From the NCBI RefSeq assembly GCF_032918005.1, contig NZ_CP136628.1:3829501-3893500 (forward strand): a stretch of DNA of 64,000 bases, read 5' to 3'. Both the position numbers and the translations under genes were made by a program. This DNA is from Bradyrhizobium sp. NDS-1 (lineage in GTDB: Bacteria > Pseudomonadota > Alphaproteobacteria > Rhizobiales > Xanthobacteraceae). The notes beneath the pieces are model-generated. The model saw only the letters and a list, made by a program, of their open reading frames with translations. It had not been told where the DNA came from and ran no database searches. Below are positions 40,700-52,225 of this stretch, in pieces. The first letter of the stretch is position 1, and the number at the start of each line of letters is the position of its first letter.

Positions 40700-41404
40700 A
40701 TGGATCAGCAGCAGGGGGCTGAAGATGTACCGGTCATTTATCTCCACGAGATAAAGCGGCAGTACTTGCAGGGCGAGGTGCCGCTGACGATCCTCGACGG
40801 CGCCAAGCTGGCGCTGTGGGCCGGTCAATCGGTCGCGCTGGTGGCGCCGTCCGGCTCGGGCAAATCGACCCTGTTGCACATCGCAGGGCTATTGGAAGCG
40901 CCCGATTCCGGCGAGGTCTATGTCTCGGGCGCGCCGACCTCGCAGCTGCCCGACATCGAGCGCACGCAGCTGCGCCGTACCGATATCGGCTTCGTCTACC
41001 AGTCGCACCGGCTGCTGCCGGAGTTCTCCGCGCTCGAGAACGTCATGATGCCGCAGATGATCCGCGGCCTCAAGAAGTCCGAGAGCGTCAAGCGCGCCAA
41101 GGAGATCCTTGGCTATCTCGGCCTCGGCGACCGCATCACCCATCGCCCCGCCGAGCTGTCAGGCGGCGAGCAGCAGCGCGTCGCGATCGCGCGTGCGGTT
41201 GCCAACGCGCCACGCGTGCTGTTCGCGGACGAGCCGACCGGCAATCTCGACCCGCACACCGCCGATCACGTCTTCCAGGCGCTGATGCAGCTCGTCAAGG
41301 CAACCAAGGTCTCGATGCTGATCGCGACTCACAACATGGAGCTCGCCGGCCGCATGGACCGGCGCGTCTCGCTGTCGAACGGCCAGGTGGTCGAGCTCGA
41401 CTAG
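40700..41404 (+). CDS. lolD: Lipoprotein-releasing ABC transporter ATP-binding protein
   Basis: A 234-residue ATPase of the MacB/LolD class. Walker A is [17 protein letters not shown] (about residues 51-67), the Q-loop is [21 protein letters not shown], the signature is [14 protein letters not shown], and Walker B is [15 protein letters not shown]. It starts seven bases after lolC. The 29-bp repeat copy 2 lies six bases after its stop. Confidence 0.94.
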
Positions 41405-41410
41405 CAAAAT

Positions 41411-41439
41411 GTGCGAAAACAACCCCATGCACAGTAGCC
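41411..41439. repeat. Dispersed 29-bp repeat, copy 2 (inverted)
   Basis: It begins GTGCGAAAACAACCCCATGC and is the exact reverse complement of 27839-27867. It lies six bases after the lolD stop codon. Both copies have the same orientation relative to the gene they follow. Confidence 0.75.
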
Positions 41440-41499
41440 AAGTGCTTGGTTGGATTTAGGAAAAAATCGGCGACGGCGGCTCCGCCGCCGCCCGGATGC

Positions 41500-42579
41500 T
41501 CAAGGCTTGATCACCGTCATTTTGAACGGTCCGCCATTGGCGGCGGCATGGGCGACGGCCTCGTTGGCATGGTCGAGGTCGAAGGCCGTGGTCTCATATT
41601 CATCGAGCCGTAGCAGACCCGACCGCACCAGCGCGATCAGGCGGCTCGCGGCGTCCGGCGGATACATCCAGACGCCGTGGATGCTGATGCAGTTGCGCAT
41701 GATCCAGGGGTAGGGCAGCTCGAGCCCCGGGCCGCCTGCCATGCCGACACCGCCCATCAGCACGACGCGTCCATAGGGGCGCACCGTCATGACCGCCGCC
41801 CGCACCACGTTGGTGCCGACCGAAGGCGGCATGATGTCGAACACGCAATCGATCGGCCCTGATGCGGCGCGCTTCATGCTTTCGCGGTCGTCGTGCTCAT
41901 TGCCGGTGAGTTTCACCGGCTTCACGCGGGCGCCGAAGCGGCGGACGAGGTCGGCCAGGATCGTCTCGTTGCGGCCGGGGGCGACCACGCACGCCGCGCC
42001 CATCGCCAGCGCGACCGAGACGGCCGCGCTGCCGAAATTGCCGGTGGCCCCGCTCACCAGCACCGTCTCGCCTGCTTGCAGGTTGGCGGCGAGGAAGCCG
42101 CCGTAGGGCACCAGTAGCGTCCCAAGGGCACACCATTGCGTCGCTTGCTCCGATGTGATCGCGCCGAGGCGTTTGACGTTCTCGGTCGGCACGCGCATCT
42201 GCTCGGCGAAGGAGCCGTGGCGAAAATGCTGTTGCAGGAGCATGCCGCCGGGACCGGCGGCAGTCAGTCCTTGCAGCGCGATGTCGGGCGCAACGGCATC
42301 ATCGCGCGAGCGCACCGTCGGGTCGCAGAACACCCAGTCGCCGATTGCGAGCCTGGTTGCGTCCGGGCCGATCGCGCGCACGCGGCCAATGCCGCCCGGA
42401 CCCGGAATGATCGGCAAGTCGAGCGCGTAGTTGCGCTCTCCGCTGAAAACCTCGTTCATATAGGACAGCACGCGTGTGGCGACGACGTCGACGATGACCT
42501 CGCCGGTGCCGAGCACCGGTTCTGGGGCATTCTCGATCGCCAGCGGCGAACCGAAGGATTTGAGCACGGCAGCTTTCAT
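41500..42579 (-). CDS. MDR-superfamily alcohol dehydrogenase/quinone reductase-like protein
   Basis: A 359-residue medium-chain dehydrogenase/reductase starting at 42579 (MKAAVLKSFGSPLAIENAPEPVLGTGEVIV). The GroES-like domain lacks the catalytic and structural zinc cysteines of true alcohol dehydrogenases. The Rossmann glycine motif is VLVSGATGNFGSAAVSVALAMGA (about residues 168-190), which fits NADPH use. It is probably a zinc-independent quinone or enone reductase, but the substrate is unknown. It is divergent from the XRE regulator gene across a 110-bp gap, which suggests it is that regulator's target. Confidence 0.8.
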   Translation of the reverse strand: MKAAVLKSFGSPLAIENAPEPVLGTGEVIVDVVATRVLSYMNEVFSGERNYALDLPIIPGPGGIGRVRAIGPDATRLAIGDWVFCDPTVRSRDDAVAPDIALQGLTAAGPGGMLLQQHFRHGSFAEQMRVPTENVKRLGAITSEQATQWCALGTLLVPYGGFLAANLQAGETVLVSGATGNFGSAAVSVALAMGAACVVAPGRNETILADLVRRFGARVKPVKLTGNEHDDRESMKRAASGPIDCVFDIMPPSVGTNVVRAAVMTVRPYGRVVLMGGVGMAGGPGLELPYPWIMRNCISIHGVWMYPPDAASRLIALVRSGLLRLDEYETTAFDLDHANEAVAHAAANGGPFKMTVIKP

Positions 42580-42689
42580 GATGTTCACCTCAAAGTCGGG
42601 TGGAACCCATATGCGCTGGCTTGGAGGAGGCAAGAAGGCCTGGTATTATCCTAGTATTTCAGAGGCCCTCCATCGCGGGAGCGACAGCA

Positions 42690-43487
42690 ATGGCAGATCC
42701 GCGCCGCGTCGAATTCGGCGATTTCCTCAGGTCCCGCCGGCAGAAGCTTTCGCCGAAGACGGTGGGGCTTCCGGCGGGCCGCCGGAGGCGCACCGCAGGG
42801 CTGCGGCGTGAGGAGGTCGCGCAACTCGCCGGCATCGGCGTCGACTGGTACATCCGCCTCGAGCAGGGCCGCACCGTCAGTCCGTCCGTCACCACCATCG
42901 ACGCGCTGGCCCGCGCGCTCCGACTGAGCAAGACCGAGCACGCGCATCTGAAAGCGCTGGCTCGCGACGGGGCAAGAAGCCCGTTCACGCGCGAAATCGT
43001 GCCGCCGCCAATCCGGCGGATGATCGAGAGCCTGAAGCAGCCGGCCTATGTCACCGGCAGGCGCTGGGACGTATTGGCCTGGAACGACGCTGCCGATGAT
43101 GTCTTCGCTTTCGGGCAATTGCCCGAGCAGGATCGCAATACGCTGTTGCTGGTCCTGACCAACAGGCAGACGCGAAAGTTCTACGGCGCGAGCTGGACCG
43201 ACGTCGCCAAGAGCATGGTTGCGATGTTTCGCGCCACGCACGACGTTTGGGCCGGCGATCCCGCCTTCACGGAGCTGCTGACGCGGCTACGCCAGGGCAG
43301 TCCGGAATTCGTCAAATGGTGGGAAGCCCACGACATCCGCAGCACGATGTCCGGCCTCAAGACCATGAACCATCCGACCAGGGGCATGCTCCGGTTCGAG
43401 CACACCAGCTTCCAGGCCAACGACGACCCCGCGCTGAAGCTGGTGATCTACACGCCGGTGTCGGGCGTTGAGGCACCAAGCCGATAG
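42690..43487 (+). CDS. XRE family regulator with MmyB-like ligand-binding domain
   Basis: A 265-residue regulator starting at 42690. The N-terminal helix-turn-helix is EFGDFLRSRRQKLSPKTVGLP...RTAGLRREEVAQLAGIGVDWYIRLEQGRTVSPSVTTIDALARALRLS. The C-terminal part (PAYVTGRRWDVLAWNDAADDVFAF, ...RLRQGSPEFVKWWEAHDI) is the MmyB-like PAS-fold domain that binds a small ligand, reported to be a fatty acid in one structure. Such regulators usually sit beside a divergent oxidoreductase gene, as here. An upstream GTATT direct repeat at about 11-bp spacing (around 42640-42660) is a possible operator. Confidence 0.86.
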   Translation: MADPRRVEFGDFLRSRRQKLSPKTVGLPAGRRRRTAGLRREEVAQLAGIGVDWYIRLEQGRTVSPSVTTIDALARALRLSKTEHAHLKALARDGARSPFTREIVPPPIRRMIESLKQPAYVTGRRWDVLAWNDAADDVFAFGQLPEQDRNTLLLVLTNRQTRKFYGASWTDVAKSMVAMFRATHDVWAGDPAFTELLTRLRQGSPEFVKWWEAHDIRSTMSGLKTMNHPTRGMLRFEHTSFQANDDPALKLVIYTPVSGVEAPSR

Positions 43488-43667
43488 TATTGGTCGGCCC
43501 GGCTGGGCGCCCGGGAACCCAAAAGCCATCATGCTGTTAACGACGGGCAGCTTGCGCTCGCCGCCTGCATCTGGATGTCGGGCAGCCTCGCGCTGCTCGA
43601 TGCGTTATGTGGGTGAAGATCGTTTCATTGGCTCCTCGAGGAGACAGGAAGTGGCAGGGGAAGACCA

Positions 43668-46600
43668 ATGACAACGGCGGCCGGGGAGACCTCGACCGAT
43701 CGCAATGCCGTCCTGGCTGCACTTGGCGACTATATCCGAGAGATCAATAACCCTGACGATCTTGCCTACGCTGCGGCTGAGCTGCTTGGCCGGAGCCTGA
43801 GGGTCAGCAGGGCCGGCTACGGCACCGTCGATACGTCGGCCGAGACCATCACGATTGCGCGCGACTGGAATGCGCCGGGCATCAAGAGCCTGGCAGGGGT
43901 GCTTCGCTTCCGCGACTACGGCAGCTACATTGAAGACCTGAAGCGCGGCGAGACCGTCATCTGTGCCGATGCGGAGAAAGACCCTCGCGTCGGTGACCGT
44001 GCCCAGGCGCTCGAGGCCATCTCTGCGCGCGCGCTGGTCAACATGCCGATCTCCGAGCCCGACGGGGTCGTGGCGCTGCTGTACCTCAACAACGCTACGC
44101 CGCGAGAATGGAGCCCCGAGGAGCTCGAGCTCATCCACGACGTCGCCGAGCGCACACGGACCGCCGTCGAGCGGCGACGTGCCGAGGCGGCGGTGCGGGA
44201 GAACGAGGCGCGGCTGCTTTTTCTAGACGCCCTCAACAAGGAGACCGCGAGGACTCGTGATGCCGACGGGGTCATGGCGGTGACGACGAGGATGCTGGGT
44301 GAGCATCTCGGCGTCTCCAACTGCGCCTATGCCGACATGGATCCCGATCAGGACGGCTTCACCATTCGCGGTGATTGGGCTGCCCCAGGCGCGATGCATA
44401 TTCTTGGGCACTACAGTCTGGCCGACTTCGGCGAGAAGGCGGTGCGAGAACTCGGCGCCGGCAGGCCCCTCATCATCAACGACAATTTGAAGGAGATCGC
44501 GCCCGAGGAGGCCGCAACCTTCCAGAATATCGGCATAGGCTCGACGATCTGCATGCCCCTGGTCAAGGAAGGGCAGCTCACTGCCCTGATGGCCATTCAT
44601 CACCGCGGCCCGCATGGTTGGACGGCGCGCGAACTCGCCTTGCTCACCGAGGTCACCGAGCGATCATGGGCGCATATCGAGCGCGTCCGCTCGGAGCAGG
44701 CAGCCCGGGAAGCTGCCGAACGGCTGGTCCTGGCGAACAAGGCGGCCGGCATCGGCACCTGGGACTACGATCCGGTCAACGACGTCTTGCGGTGGGACAG
44801 TCGCTGCAAGGAGGTGTTCGGTCTCTCGCCGGACGCCGAGGTCAGCTACGAAGGGGCGTTCCTAAAGGGCATCCATCCCGACGACAGGCAGCGCGCCCAC
44901 GAAGCCGTATCCGCCGCGCTCAGTCCTCATGCTCCGACGAGTTACAACATCGAATATCGCACCGTCGGTATCGAGGATGGCGTCGAACGCTGGATTGCGG
45001 CAACCGGCCAGGCCATCTTCACCAATGGTCAGGCTGTTCGTTTCATCGGGACGGTCCTGGACATCTCTGCGCAAAAGAAAACCGAGCGTCATCTCAGGAT
45101 ACTGAACGACACAGGTGCATCGGTCGCCCGCGAGCGCAACCTCGAAAAGATCGTGCAGATCGTGACGGATGCCGGCGTCGAGCTGACGGGCGCCCAGTTC
45201 GGGGCCTTCTTCTACAATGTTCTGACCTCGGATGGCGGCAGCTACATGCTGTATTCGCTGTCCGGCGTGCCGCGATCGGCCTTCGAGAACTTCCCGATGC
45301 CTCGCAATACGGCCGTGTTCGAGCCGACCTTCAAAGGCACGAGCGTGGTGAGGTCTGACGACATCCTGCAAGACCCGCGCTATGGCAAGAACACACCGCG
45401 AAAGGGCATGCCCGAGGGTCATCTTCCGGTTCGATCCTATCTCGCGGTCCCCGTGATCTCGCGGACGGGCGAGGTGCTTGGAGGGCTTTTCTTCGGTCAT
45501 GCCGAGACGGCCATGTTCCAGCCCGAGCATGAAGCGGCGTTGCTCGGGATCGCCGGCCACGCCGCCACGGCCATCGACAACGCCCGGCTTCTGACCCGGC
45601 TCGAGACGCTCAATGCCGGGCTGGAGCAACGTGTCGCCGACGAGATCGCAGAGCGCATGAAGGCCGAGGAGCAATTGCGGCAATCCCAGAAGATGGAAGC
45701 CGTTGGGCAGTTGACCGGCGGGATCGCGCACGACTTCAACAACATGCTGGCCGTGATTCTCGGCAGCTTGAATCTCGCCAAGCGGCGGCTCGGCAAGGGA
45801 GAGGTCAACATCGACCGCTTCATCGAGGGCGCGATCGATGGCGCAAATCGCGCGGCCACGTTGACGCAAAGGCTGCTCGCGTTCTCGCGTCAACAGCCTC
45901 TGGCGCCCGAGGTCGTGGACCTCAACAAGATGGTCGGTGGGATGAGCGAGCTGCTGGAGCGCTCGCTCGGAGAGCTTGTTCGCCTCGAGGCCGTCCTGGC
46001 GGCCGGCCTTTGGCGCGTCAAGGCCGATCCGGCCCAGCTGGAAAGCGCTGTCATCAACCTTGCGGTCAATGCGCGCGACGCCATGCCGAAGGGCGGCCGG
46101 CTGACGATCGAGACGAGCAATGCTTCGATCGACCGGAAATACGCCCGCGAATATGCATTGTCGCCCGGGCAGTACGTTCTAATCGCCGTCACGGATAACG
46201 GCACTGGAATTCCGGCCGATGTGCTGGGGAAGGTGTTCGATCCGTTCTTCACGACCAAGGTCGTGGGCAAGGGCACTGGCCTCGGCCTCAGTCAGGTCTA
46301 CGGCTTCGTGCGGCAGTCGGGTGGCCACGTCAAAATCTACTCGGAAGTCGACGTTGGCACGACGGTGAAGATCTATCTTCCACGCTTCGCGGGCGAGGAG
46401 GCGCCTTCAACGTCGTCGCAAGGCGTGACCCATCCTGGTGCAAGCCTTCAGAGCGAGACCATTCTCGTCGTAGAGGACGATGAGCGGGTTCGCAGCATCT
46501 CATCCGAAAGCCTGCGCGAGCTTGGCTATACGGTGGTCGAGGCCGCGAGCGCCAAGGAAGCGGTCAGGACGATCGAAAATGGCTTCGTTCCGGATCTGCT

Positions 46601-46817
46601 GTTTACCGACGTCGTCATGCCCGACATGACCGGCGCGGAACTTGCGGCCGAACTGTCGAAGCGATACCCGGATCTGAAGGTGCTGTTCACCACCGGCTAT
46701 ACGCGCAACGCGATCGTTCACAACGGCATGCTCGATGCCGGCAAGCATCTGCTTTCCAAGCCCTTCGCGATCGAAGACCTGGCCGCCAAGGTTCGCAATC
46801 TGCTCGACGAGGGTTGA
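43668..46817 (+). CDS. Soluble hybrid sensor histidine kinase (GAF-GAF-PAS-GAF-HisKA-HATPase-REC)
   Basis: A 1049-residue kinase starting after a GGGGAAG ribosome site. GAF-like domains lie at about residues 15-165 and 190-345, a PAS domain at 355-475 ([20 protein letters not shown]), and a third GAF at 490-650. A short coiled coil leads to HisKA with the phospho-accepting His688 in [16 protein letters not shown]. The ATPase domain shows [17 protein letters not shown] and [13 protein letters not shown]. The C-terminal receiver domain has Asp981 in [13 protein letters not shown]. No membrane helix is present, so it senses something in the cytoplasm. No response-regulator gene is adjacent, so the output is unknown. 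Confidence 0.9.
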
Positions 46818-47503
46818 AGACGTTTTGGGCGAGGCCCACGAGGAGGAAAGCGCGGTTTCTCGGCCGCGCCGCCGCGGCATGCAATGCGCCGGATGTCGAC
46901 AGCAAGGCCAAGAGGAGCAGGATAGGGACGATCGTGGGATGTCGGACGCGCAGACGGAAGGTCTGCGCCGACGTTACGCCCGGCGGCTGTGCGCGCGACG
47001 ATTCTGATAGGCGTAGGGGTCGTCGCTCTGTCCTGCGAAATACGGATTCGCGATGCAGGTCAGCGCGTCCCGATGCGGCTGCCCGACACTGTGCGTAAGC
47101 GTCGAACCTTGCTCGGACCCGGCCATCATCGCCAGTGAGGCGGAGCGGATGCCGAACACGCGCGCCGGTGCGCTTGTGCTCGACACGAGTCCAAATGTGG
47201 CAAGCGCGAGCGAAAATGTGGCGACAATGGGGATCTGCCTCGTCTAGGCATTTCAATTCTTCATCACGCGAACGTGCGCGCGACGTCGTTACGCGTATAT
47301 GCACTTTATCTCGTCTCGCCTGGACGAGAACTACAGAAAACACTTGTTCCAAAGGGTTTCCAGCGCACGCTGAGAAATCTTCATTCATGAAGCGCGGGCC
47401 TTTGGAGCCAACTGTGTCGTCGAGGTTACAGCAATTCCGTCGATCGCTGTTATGACCACGGCACGGCCAGGGGGCCTAACGACGAAACTGGAACGGGACT
47501 CAA
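46818..47503. other. 686-bp intergenic region between the hybrid kinase and the porin gene
   Basis: No intact gene of convincing quality is visible. The minus strand carries a decayed small exported protein (46974-47264). The last 60 bases are the leader of the Omp25-like gene. No terminator with a clear T-run is seen after the kinase gene. Confidence 0.45.
46974..47264 (-). pseudogene. Remnant of a small exported protein
   Basis: From an ATG at 47264 the minus-strand frame reads MKN, then meets a TGA and shortly afterwards a TAG. It then continues in the same frame through a signal-peptide-like stretch (IPIVATFSLALATFGLVSS) and a mature-looking tail ending in DDPYAYQNRRAHSRRA. The only usable later start is a GTG at 47186, which would lack the signal peptide. 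I read it as a decayed gene for a small secreted protein. A functional short form from the GTG cannot be excluded. Confidence 0.3.
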
Positions 47504-48226
47504 ATGAAGAAGAATTTGTTGCTTGCCGCTGTGAGCCTTGTCGCGCTGAGCGCGACTGCGCCGGCGCTGGCTGCTGACCTCGCGGCGCGACCCTACACCA
47601 AGGCGCCTGCGATGGTCGCCGCGGTCTATGACTGGAGCGGCTTCTACATCGGTATCAACGGCGGCGGCGGTTCGTCGAGCGCGAAATGGGACCTGGTCGG
47701 TTTCGGCCGTGATGGTTCGCACGATGCGACCGGGGGCACCGTCGGTGGCCAGATCGGGTATCGCTGGCAGTCCGGCCAGTTCGTGTTCGGCTTGGAAGGC
47801 CAGGGCAACTGGGCCGACTTCTCCGGCAGCCATGTCGGCGCGATCTCCGGCTTCACCAACAACACCAAGATCGATTCGTTCGGTCTGATCACCGGTCAGG
47901 TCGGCTACGCCTGGAATAACGTGCTGCTCTACGTCAAGGGCGGTGCGGCTGTGGTCGGCACCAAGTACGACGCCTCTTTCGCGGGCGTGTCCCTGGCATC
48001 AGCCAACGACACCCGTTGGGGCGGCACGGTCGGCGCGGGCCTCGAGTTCGGTTTCGCCCCGAACTGGTCGGTTGGCGCCGAGTACAACCACATCTTCCTC
48101 GGTGGCAACGACCGCAACCTGACCGGCCCCATTGGTGTTTTGGCGGTCAACGTCAAGCAGGACGTCGACATGGGTCTCGTTCGCCTGAACTACAAGTTCG
48201 GCGGCCCGATGCTCGGCCGTTACTGA
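47504..48226 (+). CDS. Omp25/RopB-like outer membrane beta-barrel protein
   Basis: A 240-residue small porin-like protein. The signal peptide MKKNLLLAAVSLVALSATAPALA is cleaved before ADLAARPYTKAP. YDWSGFYIGINGGGGSSSAKWD is the classic first strand of the alphaproteobacterial Omp25/Omp31 family. GGTVGGQIGYRWQSGQFVFGLEGQGNWADF and GLVRLNYKFGGP at the end complete an eight-strand barrel. It probably stabilises the outer membrane. It is monocistronic and followed by a strong terminator. Confidence 0.92.
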   Translation: MKKNLLLAAVSLVALSATAPALAADLAARPYTKAPAMVAAVYDWSGFYIGINGGGGSSSAKWDLVGFGRDGSHDATGGTVGGQIGYRWQSGQFVFGLEGQGNWADFSGSHVGAISGFTNNTKIDSFGLITGQVGYAWNNVLLYVKGGAAVVGTKYDASFAGVSLASANDTRWGGTVGAGLEFGFAPNWSVGAEYNHIFLGGNDRNLTGPIGVLAVNVKQDVDMGLVRLNYKFGGPMLGRY

Positions 48227-48253
48227 TACCGATCGCTCTTTCAGCGTTCGTGG

Positions 48254-48285
48254 AAAGCCCCGGCCTTGCGCCGGGGCTTTTTTAT
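48254..48285 (+). terminator. Rho-independent terminator of the Omp25-like gene
   Basis: AAAGCCCCGGC (48254-48264) and GCCGGGGCTTT (48270-48280) form a perfect 11-pair stem with a five-base loop, followed by TTT. It lies 28 bases after the porin stop. Confidence 0.92.
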
Positions 48286-48335
48286 TGTGTCAATTCCGCG
48301 AGTTAACCATTCCGTCGCGGGATGGTGGAGATCAC

Positions 48336-48364
48336 TTGACTCCCGAGAACGAAATGAGAACAAT
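48336..48364 (+). promoter_or_regulatory. Candidate promoter overlapped by LexA boxes
   Basis: TTGACT (48336-48341, five of six consensus) and AACAAT (48359-48364, four of six) are 17 bp apart. The expected transcription start near 48371 falls inside the downstream LexA box, so LexA bound at either site would block RNA polymerase. Confidence 0.55.
48347..48361 (-). promoter_or_regulatory. LexA (SOS) box 1, reverse orientation
   Basis: GAACGAAATGAGAAC is GAAC-N7-GAAC, which on the other strand is the alphaproteobacterial LexA consensus GTTC-N7-GTTC. It lies between the -35 and -10 elements of the candidate promoter. Confidence 0.7.
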
Positions 48365-48379
48365 GTTCTTCATACGTTC
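48365..48379 (+). promoter_or_regulatory. LexA (SOS) box 2, forward orientation
   Basis: GTTCTTCATACGTTC is a perfect GTTC-N7-GTTC. It is separated by three bases from box 1, so the two boxes form one palindromic block with GAACAATGTTC at its centre. It ends 18 bases before the start codon of the small gene at 48398. Confidence 0.8.
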
Positions 48380-48397
48380 TAGCAAAGGAGCGAGATC

Positions 48398-48496
48398 ATG
48401 TTCAAGATTTTCGTGGAAGAAGCGGCTGCCCTGGCCTCGATCACGCTGTTCGTGGGGATGATTGCGATCTGGGCCCAGGTCATACCGCAGCTTTGA
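48398..48496 (+). CDS. 32-residue single-helix membrane protein under SOS control (SidA-like architecture)
   Basis: A short gene with a strong AAGGAG ribosome site (48384-48389, eight bases before the ATG). The product begins MFKIFVEEAAALAS, continues as one hydrophobic helix (SITLFVGMIAIWAQVI) and ends PQL. It thus has a short charged N-terminus and one membrane span. Two LexA boxes and a promoter lie directly upstream. In Caulobacter the LexA-controlled 29-residue inner-membrane peptide SidA halts division by acting on FtsW/FtsN. I infer an analogous role from size, topology and regulation only; sequence homology to SidA is not shown. Confidence 0.7.
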   Translation: MFKIFVEEAAALASITLFVGMIAIWAQVIPQL

Positions 48497-48721
48497 TTCC
48501 GCCCGTCTCGGGCAGGCGGTTTTGGAAACCTGTGCTCCTCCTTCGGTGGCCCTGGGGAAAAGCGGGAGGACGCGGTCAATCGGCCGCTGCGGCGTGGACT
48601 CTGACGCTGCGACACCTCACCATTGTGAGGCGAGTCGGCAGAGCAGGCAGATGGCGAGAGCATGATGCCTTGAAGAGCCGGCAACCGCTCCATCCCATCT
48701 GCAAGAGGCCGTCACGCGACC

Positions 48722-51700
48722 ATGCCGAGCGCCGGATTTGTTCACCTTCACGTTCACTCGGCCTATTCGCTGCTCAAGGGCTCGATCAAGATCGCCAAGC
48801 TCGCCGAGCTTGCCAAGAAGGATCACCAACCGGCCCTGGCGCTGACGGACACCGACAATCTGTTCGGTGCGCTGGAGTTCTCCGACAAGATGGCGGGCTC
48901 CGGTATCCAGCCGATCGTCGGCTGCGAGCTGGCGGTCGATTTCGGTGATCAGGATCCGAACGCGCGCAACGCGATGGGGCCCTCGCGCGTGGTGCTGCTG
49001 GCGGCGCAGGAGCGCGGCTATCGCAGCCTGATGCGGCTGAACTCGCGCGCGTTCCTCGAATCGCCGGACAGCCATGCGCCCTTCGTCAAACTCGACTGGT
49101 TCGACGGGGAGACAGAAGGCCTGATCGCGCTGACGGGCGGACCGGACGGGCCGGTCTCGCTGGCGCTGGCCGGCGGCCATGCCGAACTCGCCGCGCAGCG
49201 CTGCGAGCGTCTGGCCGGCCTGTTCGGCGACCGCCTCTACATCGAATTGCAGCGCCACAACACCGACAAGGAGCGGCGTGTCGAAAGCGGCCTGATCGAC
49301 ATGGCCTACGCCAAGGGATTGCCGCTGGTTGCGACCAACGAGCCGTATTTCGCCTCGACCGACGATTACGAAGCGCATGACGCGCTGCTGTGCATCGCCG
49401 GCGGTCGGCTGATCGCCGAGACCGAGCGGGAGCAGCTCACGCCCGATCACCGTTTCAAGACCCGCGCCGAGATGGCGGTGCTGTTCGCCGACATTCCGGA
49501 GGCGCTGGCCTCGACGGTGGAGATCGCCGAGCGCTGCTCCTTCCGCCCCATGACGCGCAAGCCGATCCTGCCGTTCTTCACTGTCGGCGCCGCGCAGAGC
49601 TCGGACGCTGCAGCGGTCGAGTCGGCGGAATTGAAGCGCCAGGCGGAGGCGGGGCTTGCCAACCGCCTCAGCGTCCACGGCCTGTCCCAGGGCACCACGG
49701 AAGAAGACTACAACAAGCGCCTGGCGTTCGAGCTCGACGTCATCATGCGCATGAAATACGCGGGCTACTTCCTGATCGTGTCCGACTTCATCAAATGGGC
49801 GAAGAGCCAAGGCATTCCGGTCGGGCCGGGCCGCGGCTCCGGCGCAGGGTCGCTGGTCGCCTGGGCGCTGACCATCACCGACCTCGACCCGATCAAGTTC
49901 GGCCTGCTGTTCGAGCGCTTCCTCAATCCCGAGCGCGTCTCGATGCCGGACTTCGACATCGACTTCTGCCAGGATCGCCGCGGCGAAGTGATCAGTTACG
50001 TGCAGCAGCGCTACGGCCGCGACCAGGTCGCGCAGATCATCACCTTCGGGACGCTGCAGGCGCGCGGTGTGCTGCGCGACGTCGGCCGCGTCCTGCAAAT
50101 GCCTTACGGGCAGGTCGACAAGCTCACAAAACTCGTGCCGCAGAATCCGGCCGCGCCGGTGACGCTGGCCGCCGCGATCGAGAGCGAGCCAAAGCTCCAG
50201 GCGTTTCGCGATGAAGATCCGGTGGTGGCACGCGCCTTCGACATCGCCCAGCGCCTGGAAGGCCTGACGCGCCACGCCTCGACCCATGCGGCCGGCATCG
50301 TGATCGGCGATCGTCCCCTGAGCGAGCTCGTGCCGCTCTACCGCGATCCCAAATCCGACATGCCGGTGACCCAGTTCAACATGAAATGGGTCGAGCCGGC
50401 CGGCCTCGTGAAGTTCGACTTCCTTGGCCTGAAGACGCTCACCGTGCTCGACGTCGCGTGCAAACTCTTGAAGCCGCGCAACATCCATGTCGATCTTGCG
50501 ACGCTGCCGATCGACGATGCCGAGAGCTACCAGATGCTGGCCCGCGGCGAGGTGGTCGGCGTGTTCCAGGTTGAAAGCCAGGGCATGCGGCGCGCGCTGG
50601 TCGACATGCGCCCGGACCGTTTCGAGGACATCATCGCGCTGGTGGCGCTGTATCGGCCGGGCCCGATGGCGAACATCCCGACCTATTGCGCGCGCAAGCA
50701 CGGCGACGAGGAGCCGGAATATCTGCATCCCGTGCTGGAGCCGATCCTGAAAGAGACCTTCGGCGTCATCATCTACCAGGAACAGGTGATGCAGATCGCG
50801 CAGGTGATGTCGGGCTACTCGCTCGGCGACGCCGACCTCCTGCGCCGCGCCATGGGCAAGAAGATCCGCGCCGAGATGGACAAGCAGCGCGACATCTTCG
50901 TCGCAGGCGCGGTCAAGAACGGCGTCCCGAAGGGACAGGCCGAGACCATCTTCGAGCTGCTCGCCAAGTTCGCGGACTACGGCTTCAACAAGAGCCACGC
51001 GGCGGCCTATGCGCTGGTGTCCTACCACACCGCCTACATGAAGGCGCATTATCCGGTGGAGTTCATCGCGGCGTCGATGACGCTCGATCTCAACAACACG
51101 GACAAGCTCTCCGAATTCCGCTCGGAGGCGCAGCGCCTCGGCATCAAGGTCGAGCCGCCGAACATCAACCGCTCCGGCGCGACATTCGAGGTCGGCGAGA
51201 AGACGATCTACTACGCGCTCGCAGCGCTCAAGGGCGTCGGCATCCAGGCGATCGAGCAGATCATCGAGGAGCGCACCAAGCGGGGATTGTTCACCTCGCT
51301 CGCCGACTTTGCCGCACGGGTCAATCCGCGCGCGATCAACAAGCGCATCATCGAAAGTCTCGCGGCCGCCGGCGCCTTCGACACGCTGGAGTCGAACCGC
51401 GCCCGCGTCTTCGCCGGCGCGGACTCGATCCTGGCCGCCTGCCAGCGCGCGCATCAAGCCGAAACCATCGGCCAGAACGACATGTTCGGGATGTCGGCGG
51501 ATGCACCGACCATCATGCTGCCGCAGATCGAGCCGTGGCTGCCGGCCGAAAAGCTCCGCCGCGAATACGACGCCGTCGGCTTCTTCCTGTCGGGCCATCC
51601 GCTCGACGATTACGCCACCGTGCTGAAGCGGCTGCGGGTGCAGAGCTGGGCGGAATTCTCGCGCGCGGTGAAAACCGGCGCCACCGCCGGCAAGGTCGCG

Positions 51701-52225
51701 GCCACCGTGGTCTCGCGCATGGAGCGGCGCACAAAGACCGGCAACAAGATGGGCATCATGGGACTTTCGGATCCCACGGGCCATTTCGAGGCGGTGCTGT
51801 TCTCCGAAGGCCTCGCGCAATATCGCGACGTGCTGGAGCCGGGCGCCGCCGTGCTGCTGCAGCTCGGCGCCGAGCTCCAGGGCGAAGACGTCCGCGCCCG
51901 CGTGCTGCACGCCGAACCGCTGGATGATGCCGCCGCCAAGACGCAGAAGGGGCTGCGCATCTTCCTGCGCGACACCAAGCCGCTGGACTCGATCGCCAAG
52001 CGTCTGGCGAATCCCGACATCGCGGCATCGAACGGCGCCGCGCCAAAGATCGGCAGTCCGGCCATCGCGCCGCGCTCCAATGGCGACGGCGAGGTCTCGC
52101 TGGTGATGATGCTCGACCTCGAGACCGAGGTCGAGATGAAGCTGCCCGGCCGCTTCAAGGTCTCGCCGCAGATCGCCGGCGCGATCAAGGCGGTCGCGGG
52201 CGTAGTGGACGTGCAGCAGATCTGA
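48722..52225 (+). CDS. dnaE: DNA polymerase III subunit alpha (replicative)
   Basis: A 1167-residue replicative polymerase. The N-terminal PHP domain begins FVHLHVHSAYSLLKGSIKIAKLAELAKK. The catalytic palm has GPGRGSGAGSLVAW (about residue 370) and PDFDIDFCQDRR with the metal-binding aspartates near residues 411-413. Further blocks are ARKHGDEEPEYLHPVLEPIL, GVIIYQEQVMQIAQVMSGY and the helix-hairpin-helix/OB regions in the last 350 residues. N-terminus and length fit DnaE1, not the SOS-mutagenesis DnaE2/ImuC. No imuA or imuB is nearby. The upstream gap (48497-48721) shows no LexA box of its own. Confidence 0.95.
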   Translation: MPSAGFVHLHVHSAYSLLKGSIKIAKLAELAKKDHQPALALTDTDNLFGALEFSDKMAGSGIQPIVGCELAVDFGDQDPNARNAMGPSRVVLLAAQERGYRSLMRLNSRAFLESPDSHAPFVKLDWFDGETEGLIALTGGPDGPVSLALAGGHAELAAQRCERLAGLFGDRLYIELQRHNTDKERRVESGLIDMAYAKGLPLVATNEPYFASTDDYEAHDALLCIAGGRLIAETEREQLTPDHRFKTRAEMAVLFADIPEALASTVEIAERCSFRPMTRKPILPFFTVGAAQSSDAAAVESAELKRQAEAGLANRLSVHGLSQGTTEEDYNKRLAFELDVIMRMKYAGYFLIVSDFIKWAKSQGIPVGPGRGSGAGSLVAWALTITDLDPIKFGLLFERFLNPERVSMPDFDIDFCQDRRGEVISYVQQRYGRDQVAQIITFGTLQARGVLRDVGRVLQMPYGQVDKLTKLVPQNPAAPVTLAAAIESEPKLQAFRDEDPVVARAFDIAQRLEGLTRHASTHAAGIVIGDRPLSELVPLYRDPKSDMPVTQFNMKWVEPAGLVKFDFLGLKTLTVLDVACKLLKPRNIHVDLATLPIDDAESYQMLARGEVVGVFQVESQGMRRALVDMRPDRFEDIIALVALYRPGPMANIPTYCARKHGDEEPEYLHPVLEPILKETFGVIIYQEQVMQIAQVMSGYSLGDADLLRRAMGKKIRAEMDKQRDIFVAGAVKNGVPKGQAETIFELLAKFADYGFNKSHAAAYALVSYHTAYMKAHYPVEFIAASMTLDLNNTDKLSEFRSEAQRLGIKVEPPNINRSGATFEVGEKTIYYALAALKGVGIQAIEQIIEERTKRGLFTSLADFAARVNPRAINKRIIESLAAAGAFDTLESNRARVFAGADSILAACQRAHQAETIGQNDMFGMSADAPTIMLPQIEPWLPAEKLRREYDAVGFFLSGHPLDDYATVLKRLRVQSWAEFSRAVKTGATAGKVAATVVSRMERRTKTGNKMGIMGLSDPTGHFEAVLFSEGLAQYRDVLEPGAAVLLQLGAELQGEDVRARVLHAEPLDDAAAKTQKGLRIFLRDTKPLDSIAKRLANPDIAASNGAAPKIGSPAIAPRSNGDGEVSLVMMLDLETEVEMKLPGRFKVSPQIAGAIKAVAGVVDVQQI

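What the first reader, a model, noticed from the sequence alone, without database searches (positions are those of the whole stretch)
48336..48496. SOS-controlled 32-residue membrane peptide, a possible SidA-type division inhibitor
A promoter (TTGACT, 17 bp, AACAAT) is overlaid by two LexA boxes, GAAC-N7-GAAC and GTTC-N7-GTTC, three bases apart. An AAGGAG ribosome site and a 32-codon gene follow. The peptide is one membrane helix with a short charged N-terminus. Known: alphaproteobacterial LexA binds GTTC-N7-GTTC, and Caulobacter SidA is a LexA-regulated 29-residue inner-membrane division inhibitor. Inference: this is the Bradyrhizobium counterpart. The gene is short enough to be missed by standard annotation.
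Basis: partly seen in the sequence, partly recalled or inferred. Interest (0 to 1): 0.85.

Follow-up and report, generated by a model that had tools for sequence, protein, structure and literature searches.

The report
SidA-type SOS division-inhibitor gene
A tiny membrane-protein gene behind two DNA-damage-repressor sites sits in the same chromosomal slot where the model bacterium Caulobacter keeps its emergency brake on cell division, which suggests that this brake is older and more widespread than the gene names let on.

Summary
At 48336-48496 a promoter (TTGACT-17-AACAAT) is covered by two facing GTTC-N7-GTTC boxes three bases apart, the only such site in the 7.6-Mb genome, followed by a ribosome site and a 32-codon gene. 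The peptide is in 36 of 36 same-genus genomes searched, the double box at 71 of 78 family loci examined, and the frame is under purifying selection (N/S per site about 0.10). Single boxes stand before lexA, uvrA and ssb of the same genome.
New: the gene lies in a recurrent locus, LolD-like gene / LexA box / small membrane ORF / dnaE1. In Caulobacterales the ORF in that slot is the 29-aa protein that NCBI names SidA (19 of 19 loci with dnaE). The peptide resembles SidA weakly but mostly above shuffles, one helix face is conserved, and three FtsW positions tied to SidA resistance are kept.
Best reading: a sidA counterpart, an SOS-induced block of the septal FtsW/FtsI machinery with a double operator. 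Induction, FtsW binding and filamentation are untested.

The parts
48336..48364 (+). sigma-70-type promoter, TTGACT - 17 - AACAAT
   Evidence: 9 of 12 consensus bases; the only promoter-like site in 48150-48800; TTGAC lies within 16 nt before the double box at 71 of 71 double-box loci
48347..48361 (-). LexA-type box 1, GAACGAAATGAGAAC read on +, over the spacer and the -10 hexamer
   Evidence: kept in 30 of 30 genus loci
48365..48379 (+). LexA-type box 2, GTTCTTCATACGTTC, over the expected start point
   Evidence: kept in 30 of 30 genus loci; start point inferred from the -10 position, not measured
48385..48390 (+). ribosome-binding site AAGGAG, 7 nt before the ATG
48398..48496 (+). sidA-like gene, 32 aa, one predicted membrane helix
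   Evidence: no Pfam or NCBIfam model matches it
48722..52225 (+). dnaE1, DNA polymerase III alpha subunit, the constant downstream neighbour
   Evidence: TIGR00594 at 1218 bits; dnaE follows at 72 of 74 loci
40736..41398 (+). LolD-like ABC transporter gene (matched stretch), the usual upstream neighbour, here about 7 kb away
   Evidence: 68% identical to the LolD-like ORF beside the gene in L031; best NCBIfam match TIGR02211 LolD, 251 bits, under its cut-off of 308
48252..48282 (+). terminator-like hairpin after the outer-membrane-protein gene 47504-48226, which separates the SOS promoter from it
   Evidence: PF13505 for the upstream gene

Best explanation
This is the counterpart of Caulobacter sidA. 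In undamaged cells LexA sits on two adjacent operators that cover the spacer, the -10 region and the start point, and keeps a near-consensus promoter shut. RecA-driven LexA cleavage opens it, and a 32-aa peptide inserts into the inner membrane as one helix. There it packs through a conserved helix face (A11, S14, F18, M21, W25) against the late divisome, most likely FtsW, and holds FtsW/FtsI/FtsN in the inactive state, so that septation waits for repair. Shown: sequence elements, coding constraint, conserved double operator, shared slot with sidA, conserved face. Inferred: LexA binding, induction, membrane topology, FtsW as target, the division block.
For: Double operator unique in the genome and kept at 71 of 78 family loci; LexA gene and boxes before lexA, uvrA, ssb in the same genome; coding constraint; same slot before dnaE as NCBI-named SidA, 19 of 19 Caulobacterales loci; order-level profile hits fall before dnaE in 27 of 36 fetched loci; similarity to SidA: hhalign P 7.6e-4 over 23 ungapped columns, window against OR37 SidA 1 of 2000 shuffles as good, a model without SidA scores four SidAs better than all but 10, 80, 1 and 1 of 5000 shuffles; helical periodicity of conservation, 30 of 20,000 permutations as strong; FtsW positions A31, F145, A246 identical in this genome's FtsW. 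SidA's action on FtsW and the suppressor positions: PMC4211646, passages.
Against: No experiment. Sequence similarity to SidA is weak: hhalign probability only 25%, some pairs no better than 330-336 of 2000 shuffles, and the class-wide profile search gave almost only chance hits. W25, strongly conserved here, is V in SidA, and A10 and L12 are conserved but off the proposed face. The FtsW check is weak, since those proteins are 46% identical anyway, and SidA binding to FtsW was reported unaffected by A246T. 49 of 60 class regions lack box plus small membrane ORF, and 44 of 248 family genomes lack a match.
Confidence: 0.75

Rival explanations
1. A sidA-descended or look-alike SOS membrane peptide whose target is a different membrane protein (another divisome part, or an envelope enzyme), so damage control is right but FtsW is not the partner.
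For: Peptides diverge strongly between families while position and box persist; Caulobacter itself has a second inhibitor, DidA, that binds FtsN and not FtsW (PMC4211646, passages).
Against: Shared slot and shared register with SidA; FtsW positions kept (weak).
Confidence: 0.13
2. A TisB-like SOS peptide: it depolarises the inner membrane and causes dormancy, without a divisome target.
For: Size, single helix and LexA boxes fit as well (TisB features recalled, from no call).
Against: The predicted helix carries no charged residue; one face is conserved, as expected for a specific partner; no RNA family above its gathering score at 48200-48900; the slot is that of sidA.
Confidence: 0.06
3. The boxes serve dnaE1: the ORF is a leader peptide or by-product, and the SOS promoter mainly raises replicative polymerase.
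For: dnaE follows at 72 of 74 loci; no convincing terminator between them in the window; at the 12 Caulobacterales loci measured the gap to the dnaE match is only 40-72 nt.
Against: Amino-acid-level constraint; in this family the dnaE match begins about 220-910 nt after the ORF start; a conserved block before dnaE in 26 of 30 loci may be its own start region.
Confidence: 0.05

Closest known systems
SidA of Caulobacter (29 aa, CCNA_02004)
   Same: Slot directly before dnaE (seen in 19 Caulobacterales loci), LexA box, about 30 residues with one membrane helix, shared register acid-xx-A-L-x-S-V-xx-F-V-x-M.
   Different: 32 aa; facing double box here, while Caulobacterales show one exact box (12 of 19) or only one-mismatch boxes (7 of 19), usually with further near-boxes in tandem; W25 instead of V; dnaE further away; no functional data.
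DidA of Caulobacter (71 aa)
   Same: Damage-induced small inner-membrane division inhibitor that acts on the same late complex (PMC4211646, passages).
   Different: Longer, not LexA-controlled, binds FtsN; sequence not compared here.
TisB of E. coli
   Same: Small SOS-induced membrane peptide of similar length (recalled).
   Different: Membrane-depolarising toxin with an antisense RNA (recalled); no shared locus known to me; not compared by sequence here.
SulA, YneA, SosA
   Same: SOS-induced block of division (papers listed; YneA and SosA seen as listing and abstract starts only, SulA in passages).
   Different: Unrelated by the description (sulA, yneA and sidA are called unrelated); not compared by sequence here.

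Membership tests
SidA | Chromosomal slot directly before the replicative dnaE | tested here: met
   dnaE1 starts 226 nt after the stop codon; NCBI-named SidA holds the same slot in Caulobacterales, 19 of 19 loci with dnaE
SidA | LexA-type operator over the promoter | tested here: met
   Two boxes in the window, kept at 71 of 78 family loci; sequence evidence only
SidA | About 29 aa with a single hydrophobic helix | tested here: met
   32 aa, hydropathy 2.08 against 2.06 for SidA; no structure model was obtained (searches failed, machine busy)
SidA | Sequence similarity to SidA | tested here: inconclusive
   Above shuffles in most but not all comparisons; hhalign probability 25%, P 7.6e-4
SidA | Binds FtsW and blocks division when induced by DNA damage | not testable with these tools
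   Only indirect: FtsW positions A31, F145, A246 are kept
Alphaproteobacterial LexA regulon | Genome has LexA, and the same box stands before core SOS genes | tested here: met
   LexA TIGR00498, 185 bits; boxes 100, 83 and 155 nt before lexA, uvrA and ssb
TisB | Antisense RNA next to the gene | tested here: inconclusive
   No Rfam family above its gathering score at 48200-48900; an unknown RNA cannot be excluded
TisB | Depolarises the membrane | not testable with these tools
   Needs an experiment

The most novel reading that the evidence does not exclude
SidA is not a Caulobacter speciality but an old, fast-evolving SOS checkpoint gene that sits before dnaE1 over much of the Alphaproteobacteria, largely without a functional name. 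In the window's family it gained a composite double LexA operator that makes it one of the most tightly held genes of the SOS response.
Probability: 0.62. Interest if true: 0.72.

Novelty: new member of a known kind. Interest (0 to 1): 0.62.

Why it matters
In the passages I read, an SOS-induced division inhibitor within this class is described only for Caulobacter. A LexA-boxed gene family in a fixed slot gives a ready candidate for rhizobia and their relatives, testable by one deletion and one over-expression. It also shows how very short genes escape functional annotation. Many natural variants around a constant helix face could map how a 30-residue peptide stops the septal cell-wall synthase.

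Tried and rejected
Single-box statistics: a lone GTTC-N7-GTTC is no evidence by itself in this genome. Pfam and NCBIfam: no family for the peptide. Class-wide profile search: 25 of 289 genomes at E<=0.1, apart from the own genome and G361 apparently chance, many inside long frames. Nine of 36 fetched loci are not beside a dnaE match, seven of them apparently chance. Terminator after the ORF: hairpin with z -0.75, not convincing. Rfam: only matches below the gathering scores, all overlapping the upstream hairpin region 48204-48346. One search read loci in the wrong orientation and was redone. could not place the ORF in five loci, which were added by coordinate. Paper searches showed in their listings no report of SidA counterparts outside Caulobacterales. 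The original SidA paper (Modell 2011, DOI recalled) and Erill 2004 are not held, so mention there cannot be excluded. Structure prediction was tried three times and never ran.

Full report
Observation. A single box is not informative in this genome (87 and 67 matches against 88 and 82 for the reversed pattern). The facing pair is: one place in 7.6 Mb, control 0. The upstream outer-membrane-protein gene (47504-48226, PF13505) is followed by a terminator-like hairpin at 48252-48282, so the promoter looks like a separate unit.

Conservation. All 36 same-genus genomes searched, own genome included, hold the peptide. The 30 best loci of that search were read, and 30 of 30 keep the double box. In the family, 204 of 248 genomes match the profile at E<=1 and 44 do not. 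I examined 78 family loci: those 30, 28 more among the 30 best, and 20 divergent ones that I picked. Of these, 71 have the exact double box, all 71 with TTGAC just before it; 6 have at least one exact box; 1 (L049) has none. The sample is weighted towards close relatives. The codon pattern shows a selected protein: 12, 3 and 28 variable sites of 31 at codon positions 1, 2 and 3, and N/S per site about 0.10.

SOS context. The genome has a LexA (TIGR00498, 185 bits). Exact boxes stand 100 nt before lexA, 83 nt before the uvrA frame and 155 nt before ssb. I looked at 12 other box sites picked from the listed part; uvrA and ssb are two of them, and most of the rest had no obvious SOS target.

Locus. 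dnaE1 (48722-52225; TIGR00594, 1218 bits) follows. Of 74 loci that the script could orient (73 of the family and L031), dnaE follows in 72; L040 and L073 show no dnaE match in the stretch held. In the window a LolD-like gene lies about 7 kb upstream (40736-41398), with a sensor kinase (43668-46817) and the outer-membrane gene in between. In the order, 56 of 297 genomes match a broader profile at E<=0.01. From the order and class searches I fetched 36 loci: 27 lie before a dnaE match, and 23 of these 27 have an exact box within 250 nt. Of the other nine, L094 (beside a LolD-like gene) and L107 (short contig) still carry a box; seven look like chance. The class-wide profile search itself gave almost only chance hits. 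From 267 of 289 class genomes with a dnaE match I took 60 upstream regions. 16 hold an exact box, and 11 hold box plus a 25-50-aa membrane ORF; reversed sequences, reverse complements and 50 shuffled sets gave 0. So 49 of 60 do not show the arrangement at this stringency.

Link to SidA. Papers, seen as passages: SidA is a 29-aa inner-membrane protein that acts through FtsW (PMC4211646); its gene is CCNA_02004 (PMC10769358); a Caulobacter dnaE is CC1926 (PMC1839093, table). The two numberings differ, so I looked directly. A scan with PopZ gave named Caulobacter and Phenylobacterium loci. In 20 genomes picked from these, dnaE was found in 19. In 19 of 19 an ORF like [29 protein letters not shown] stands right before dnaE, behind an exact LexA box (12) or only one-mismatch boxes (7). 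The copy in C. vibrioides OR37 (L266) equals P0023, which NCBI names cell division inhibitor SidA. The window gene therefore holds the sidA slot.

Similarity. In a combined alignment SidA and this family share a register: acid, A-L, S, V or I, F, V, M. Window against OR37 SidA: 1 of 2000 shuffles as good. Over the 24 pairs tested the figure ranges from 0 to 336 of 2000, worst for the L031 member. Profile against profile: 23 ungapped columns, 39% identity, probability 25%, P 7.6e-4. A model built without any SidA scores four SidAs better than all but 10, 80, 1 and 1 of 5000 shuffles. Sequence alone would be suggestive; position makes it strong.

Mechanism. Conservation along the helix peaks at 100 degrees per residue (30 of 20,000 permutations as strong) through A11, S14, F18, M21 and W25; E8, A10 and L12 are also conserved. 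That fits one packing face, though W25 is V in SidA. FtsW residues changed in SidA-resistant Caulobacter (A31, F145, A246) carry those letters at those numbers in OR37 FtsW and are identical in this genome's FtsW, against 177 of 382 positions overall. This is a weak check, and A246T was reported not to affect SidA binding. I infer that the peptide holds the FtsW/FtsI/FtsN complex inactive. The boxes cover spacer, -10 and expected start point, so one LexA dimer on each would shut the promoter tightly. In Caulobacter a lexA deletion causes extreme filamentation that depends on sidA (PMC12700426, passages), which is what a tightly held counterpart here would predict. These steps are inference.

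Verdict. Control by LexA: very likely from sequence. Counterpart of sidA by locus: very likely. Same action on FtsW: likely, untested. Among the 120 listed of 803 database relatives none shows a functional name, whereas Caulobacterales members are named SidA.

Noticed in passing
window 48554-48640 and L001-L030: Between the small gene and dnaE1 a conserved non-coding block (GGGGAAAAGC, then about 35 nt later CGTGGACTC, then CACCATTG) occurs in 26 of 30 genus loci; it may be dnaE's own start region.
   Followed up: partly
window 41400-48230: In this genome a hybrid sensor kinase (43668-46817; partial, below-cut-off resemblance to CckA-type kinases) and an outer-membrane protein gene lie between the LolD-like gene and the sidA-like gene; at L003, L031 and others the neighbours differ.
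   Followed up: partly
L071, L072, L076: In this subgroup the two boxes are pulled about 46 bases apart (starts at about -75 and -29), and the peptide ends in GVITGV.
   Followed up: no
L265, L266, L272, L275-L277: Caulobacter sidA promoters carry one exact and two one-mismatch LexA boxes in tandem 16-18 bases apart, and an in-frame upstream start gives a 40-aa reading.
   Followed up: no
L285 (own genome near 2295795), L287 (own genome near 4344308): Further exact boxes stand near a frame that looks by eye like a Ku-type protein, and before a 63-aa protein without an NCBIfam match.
   Followed up: no
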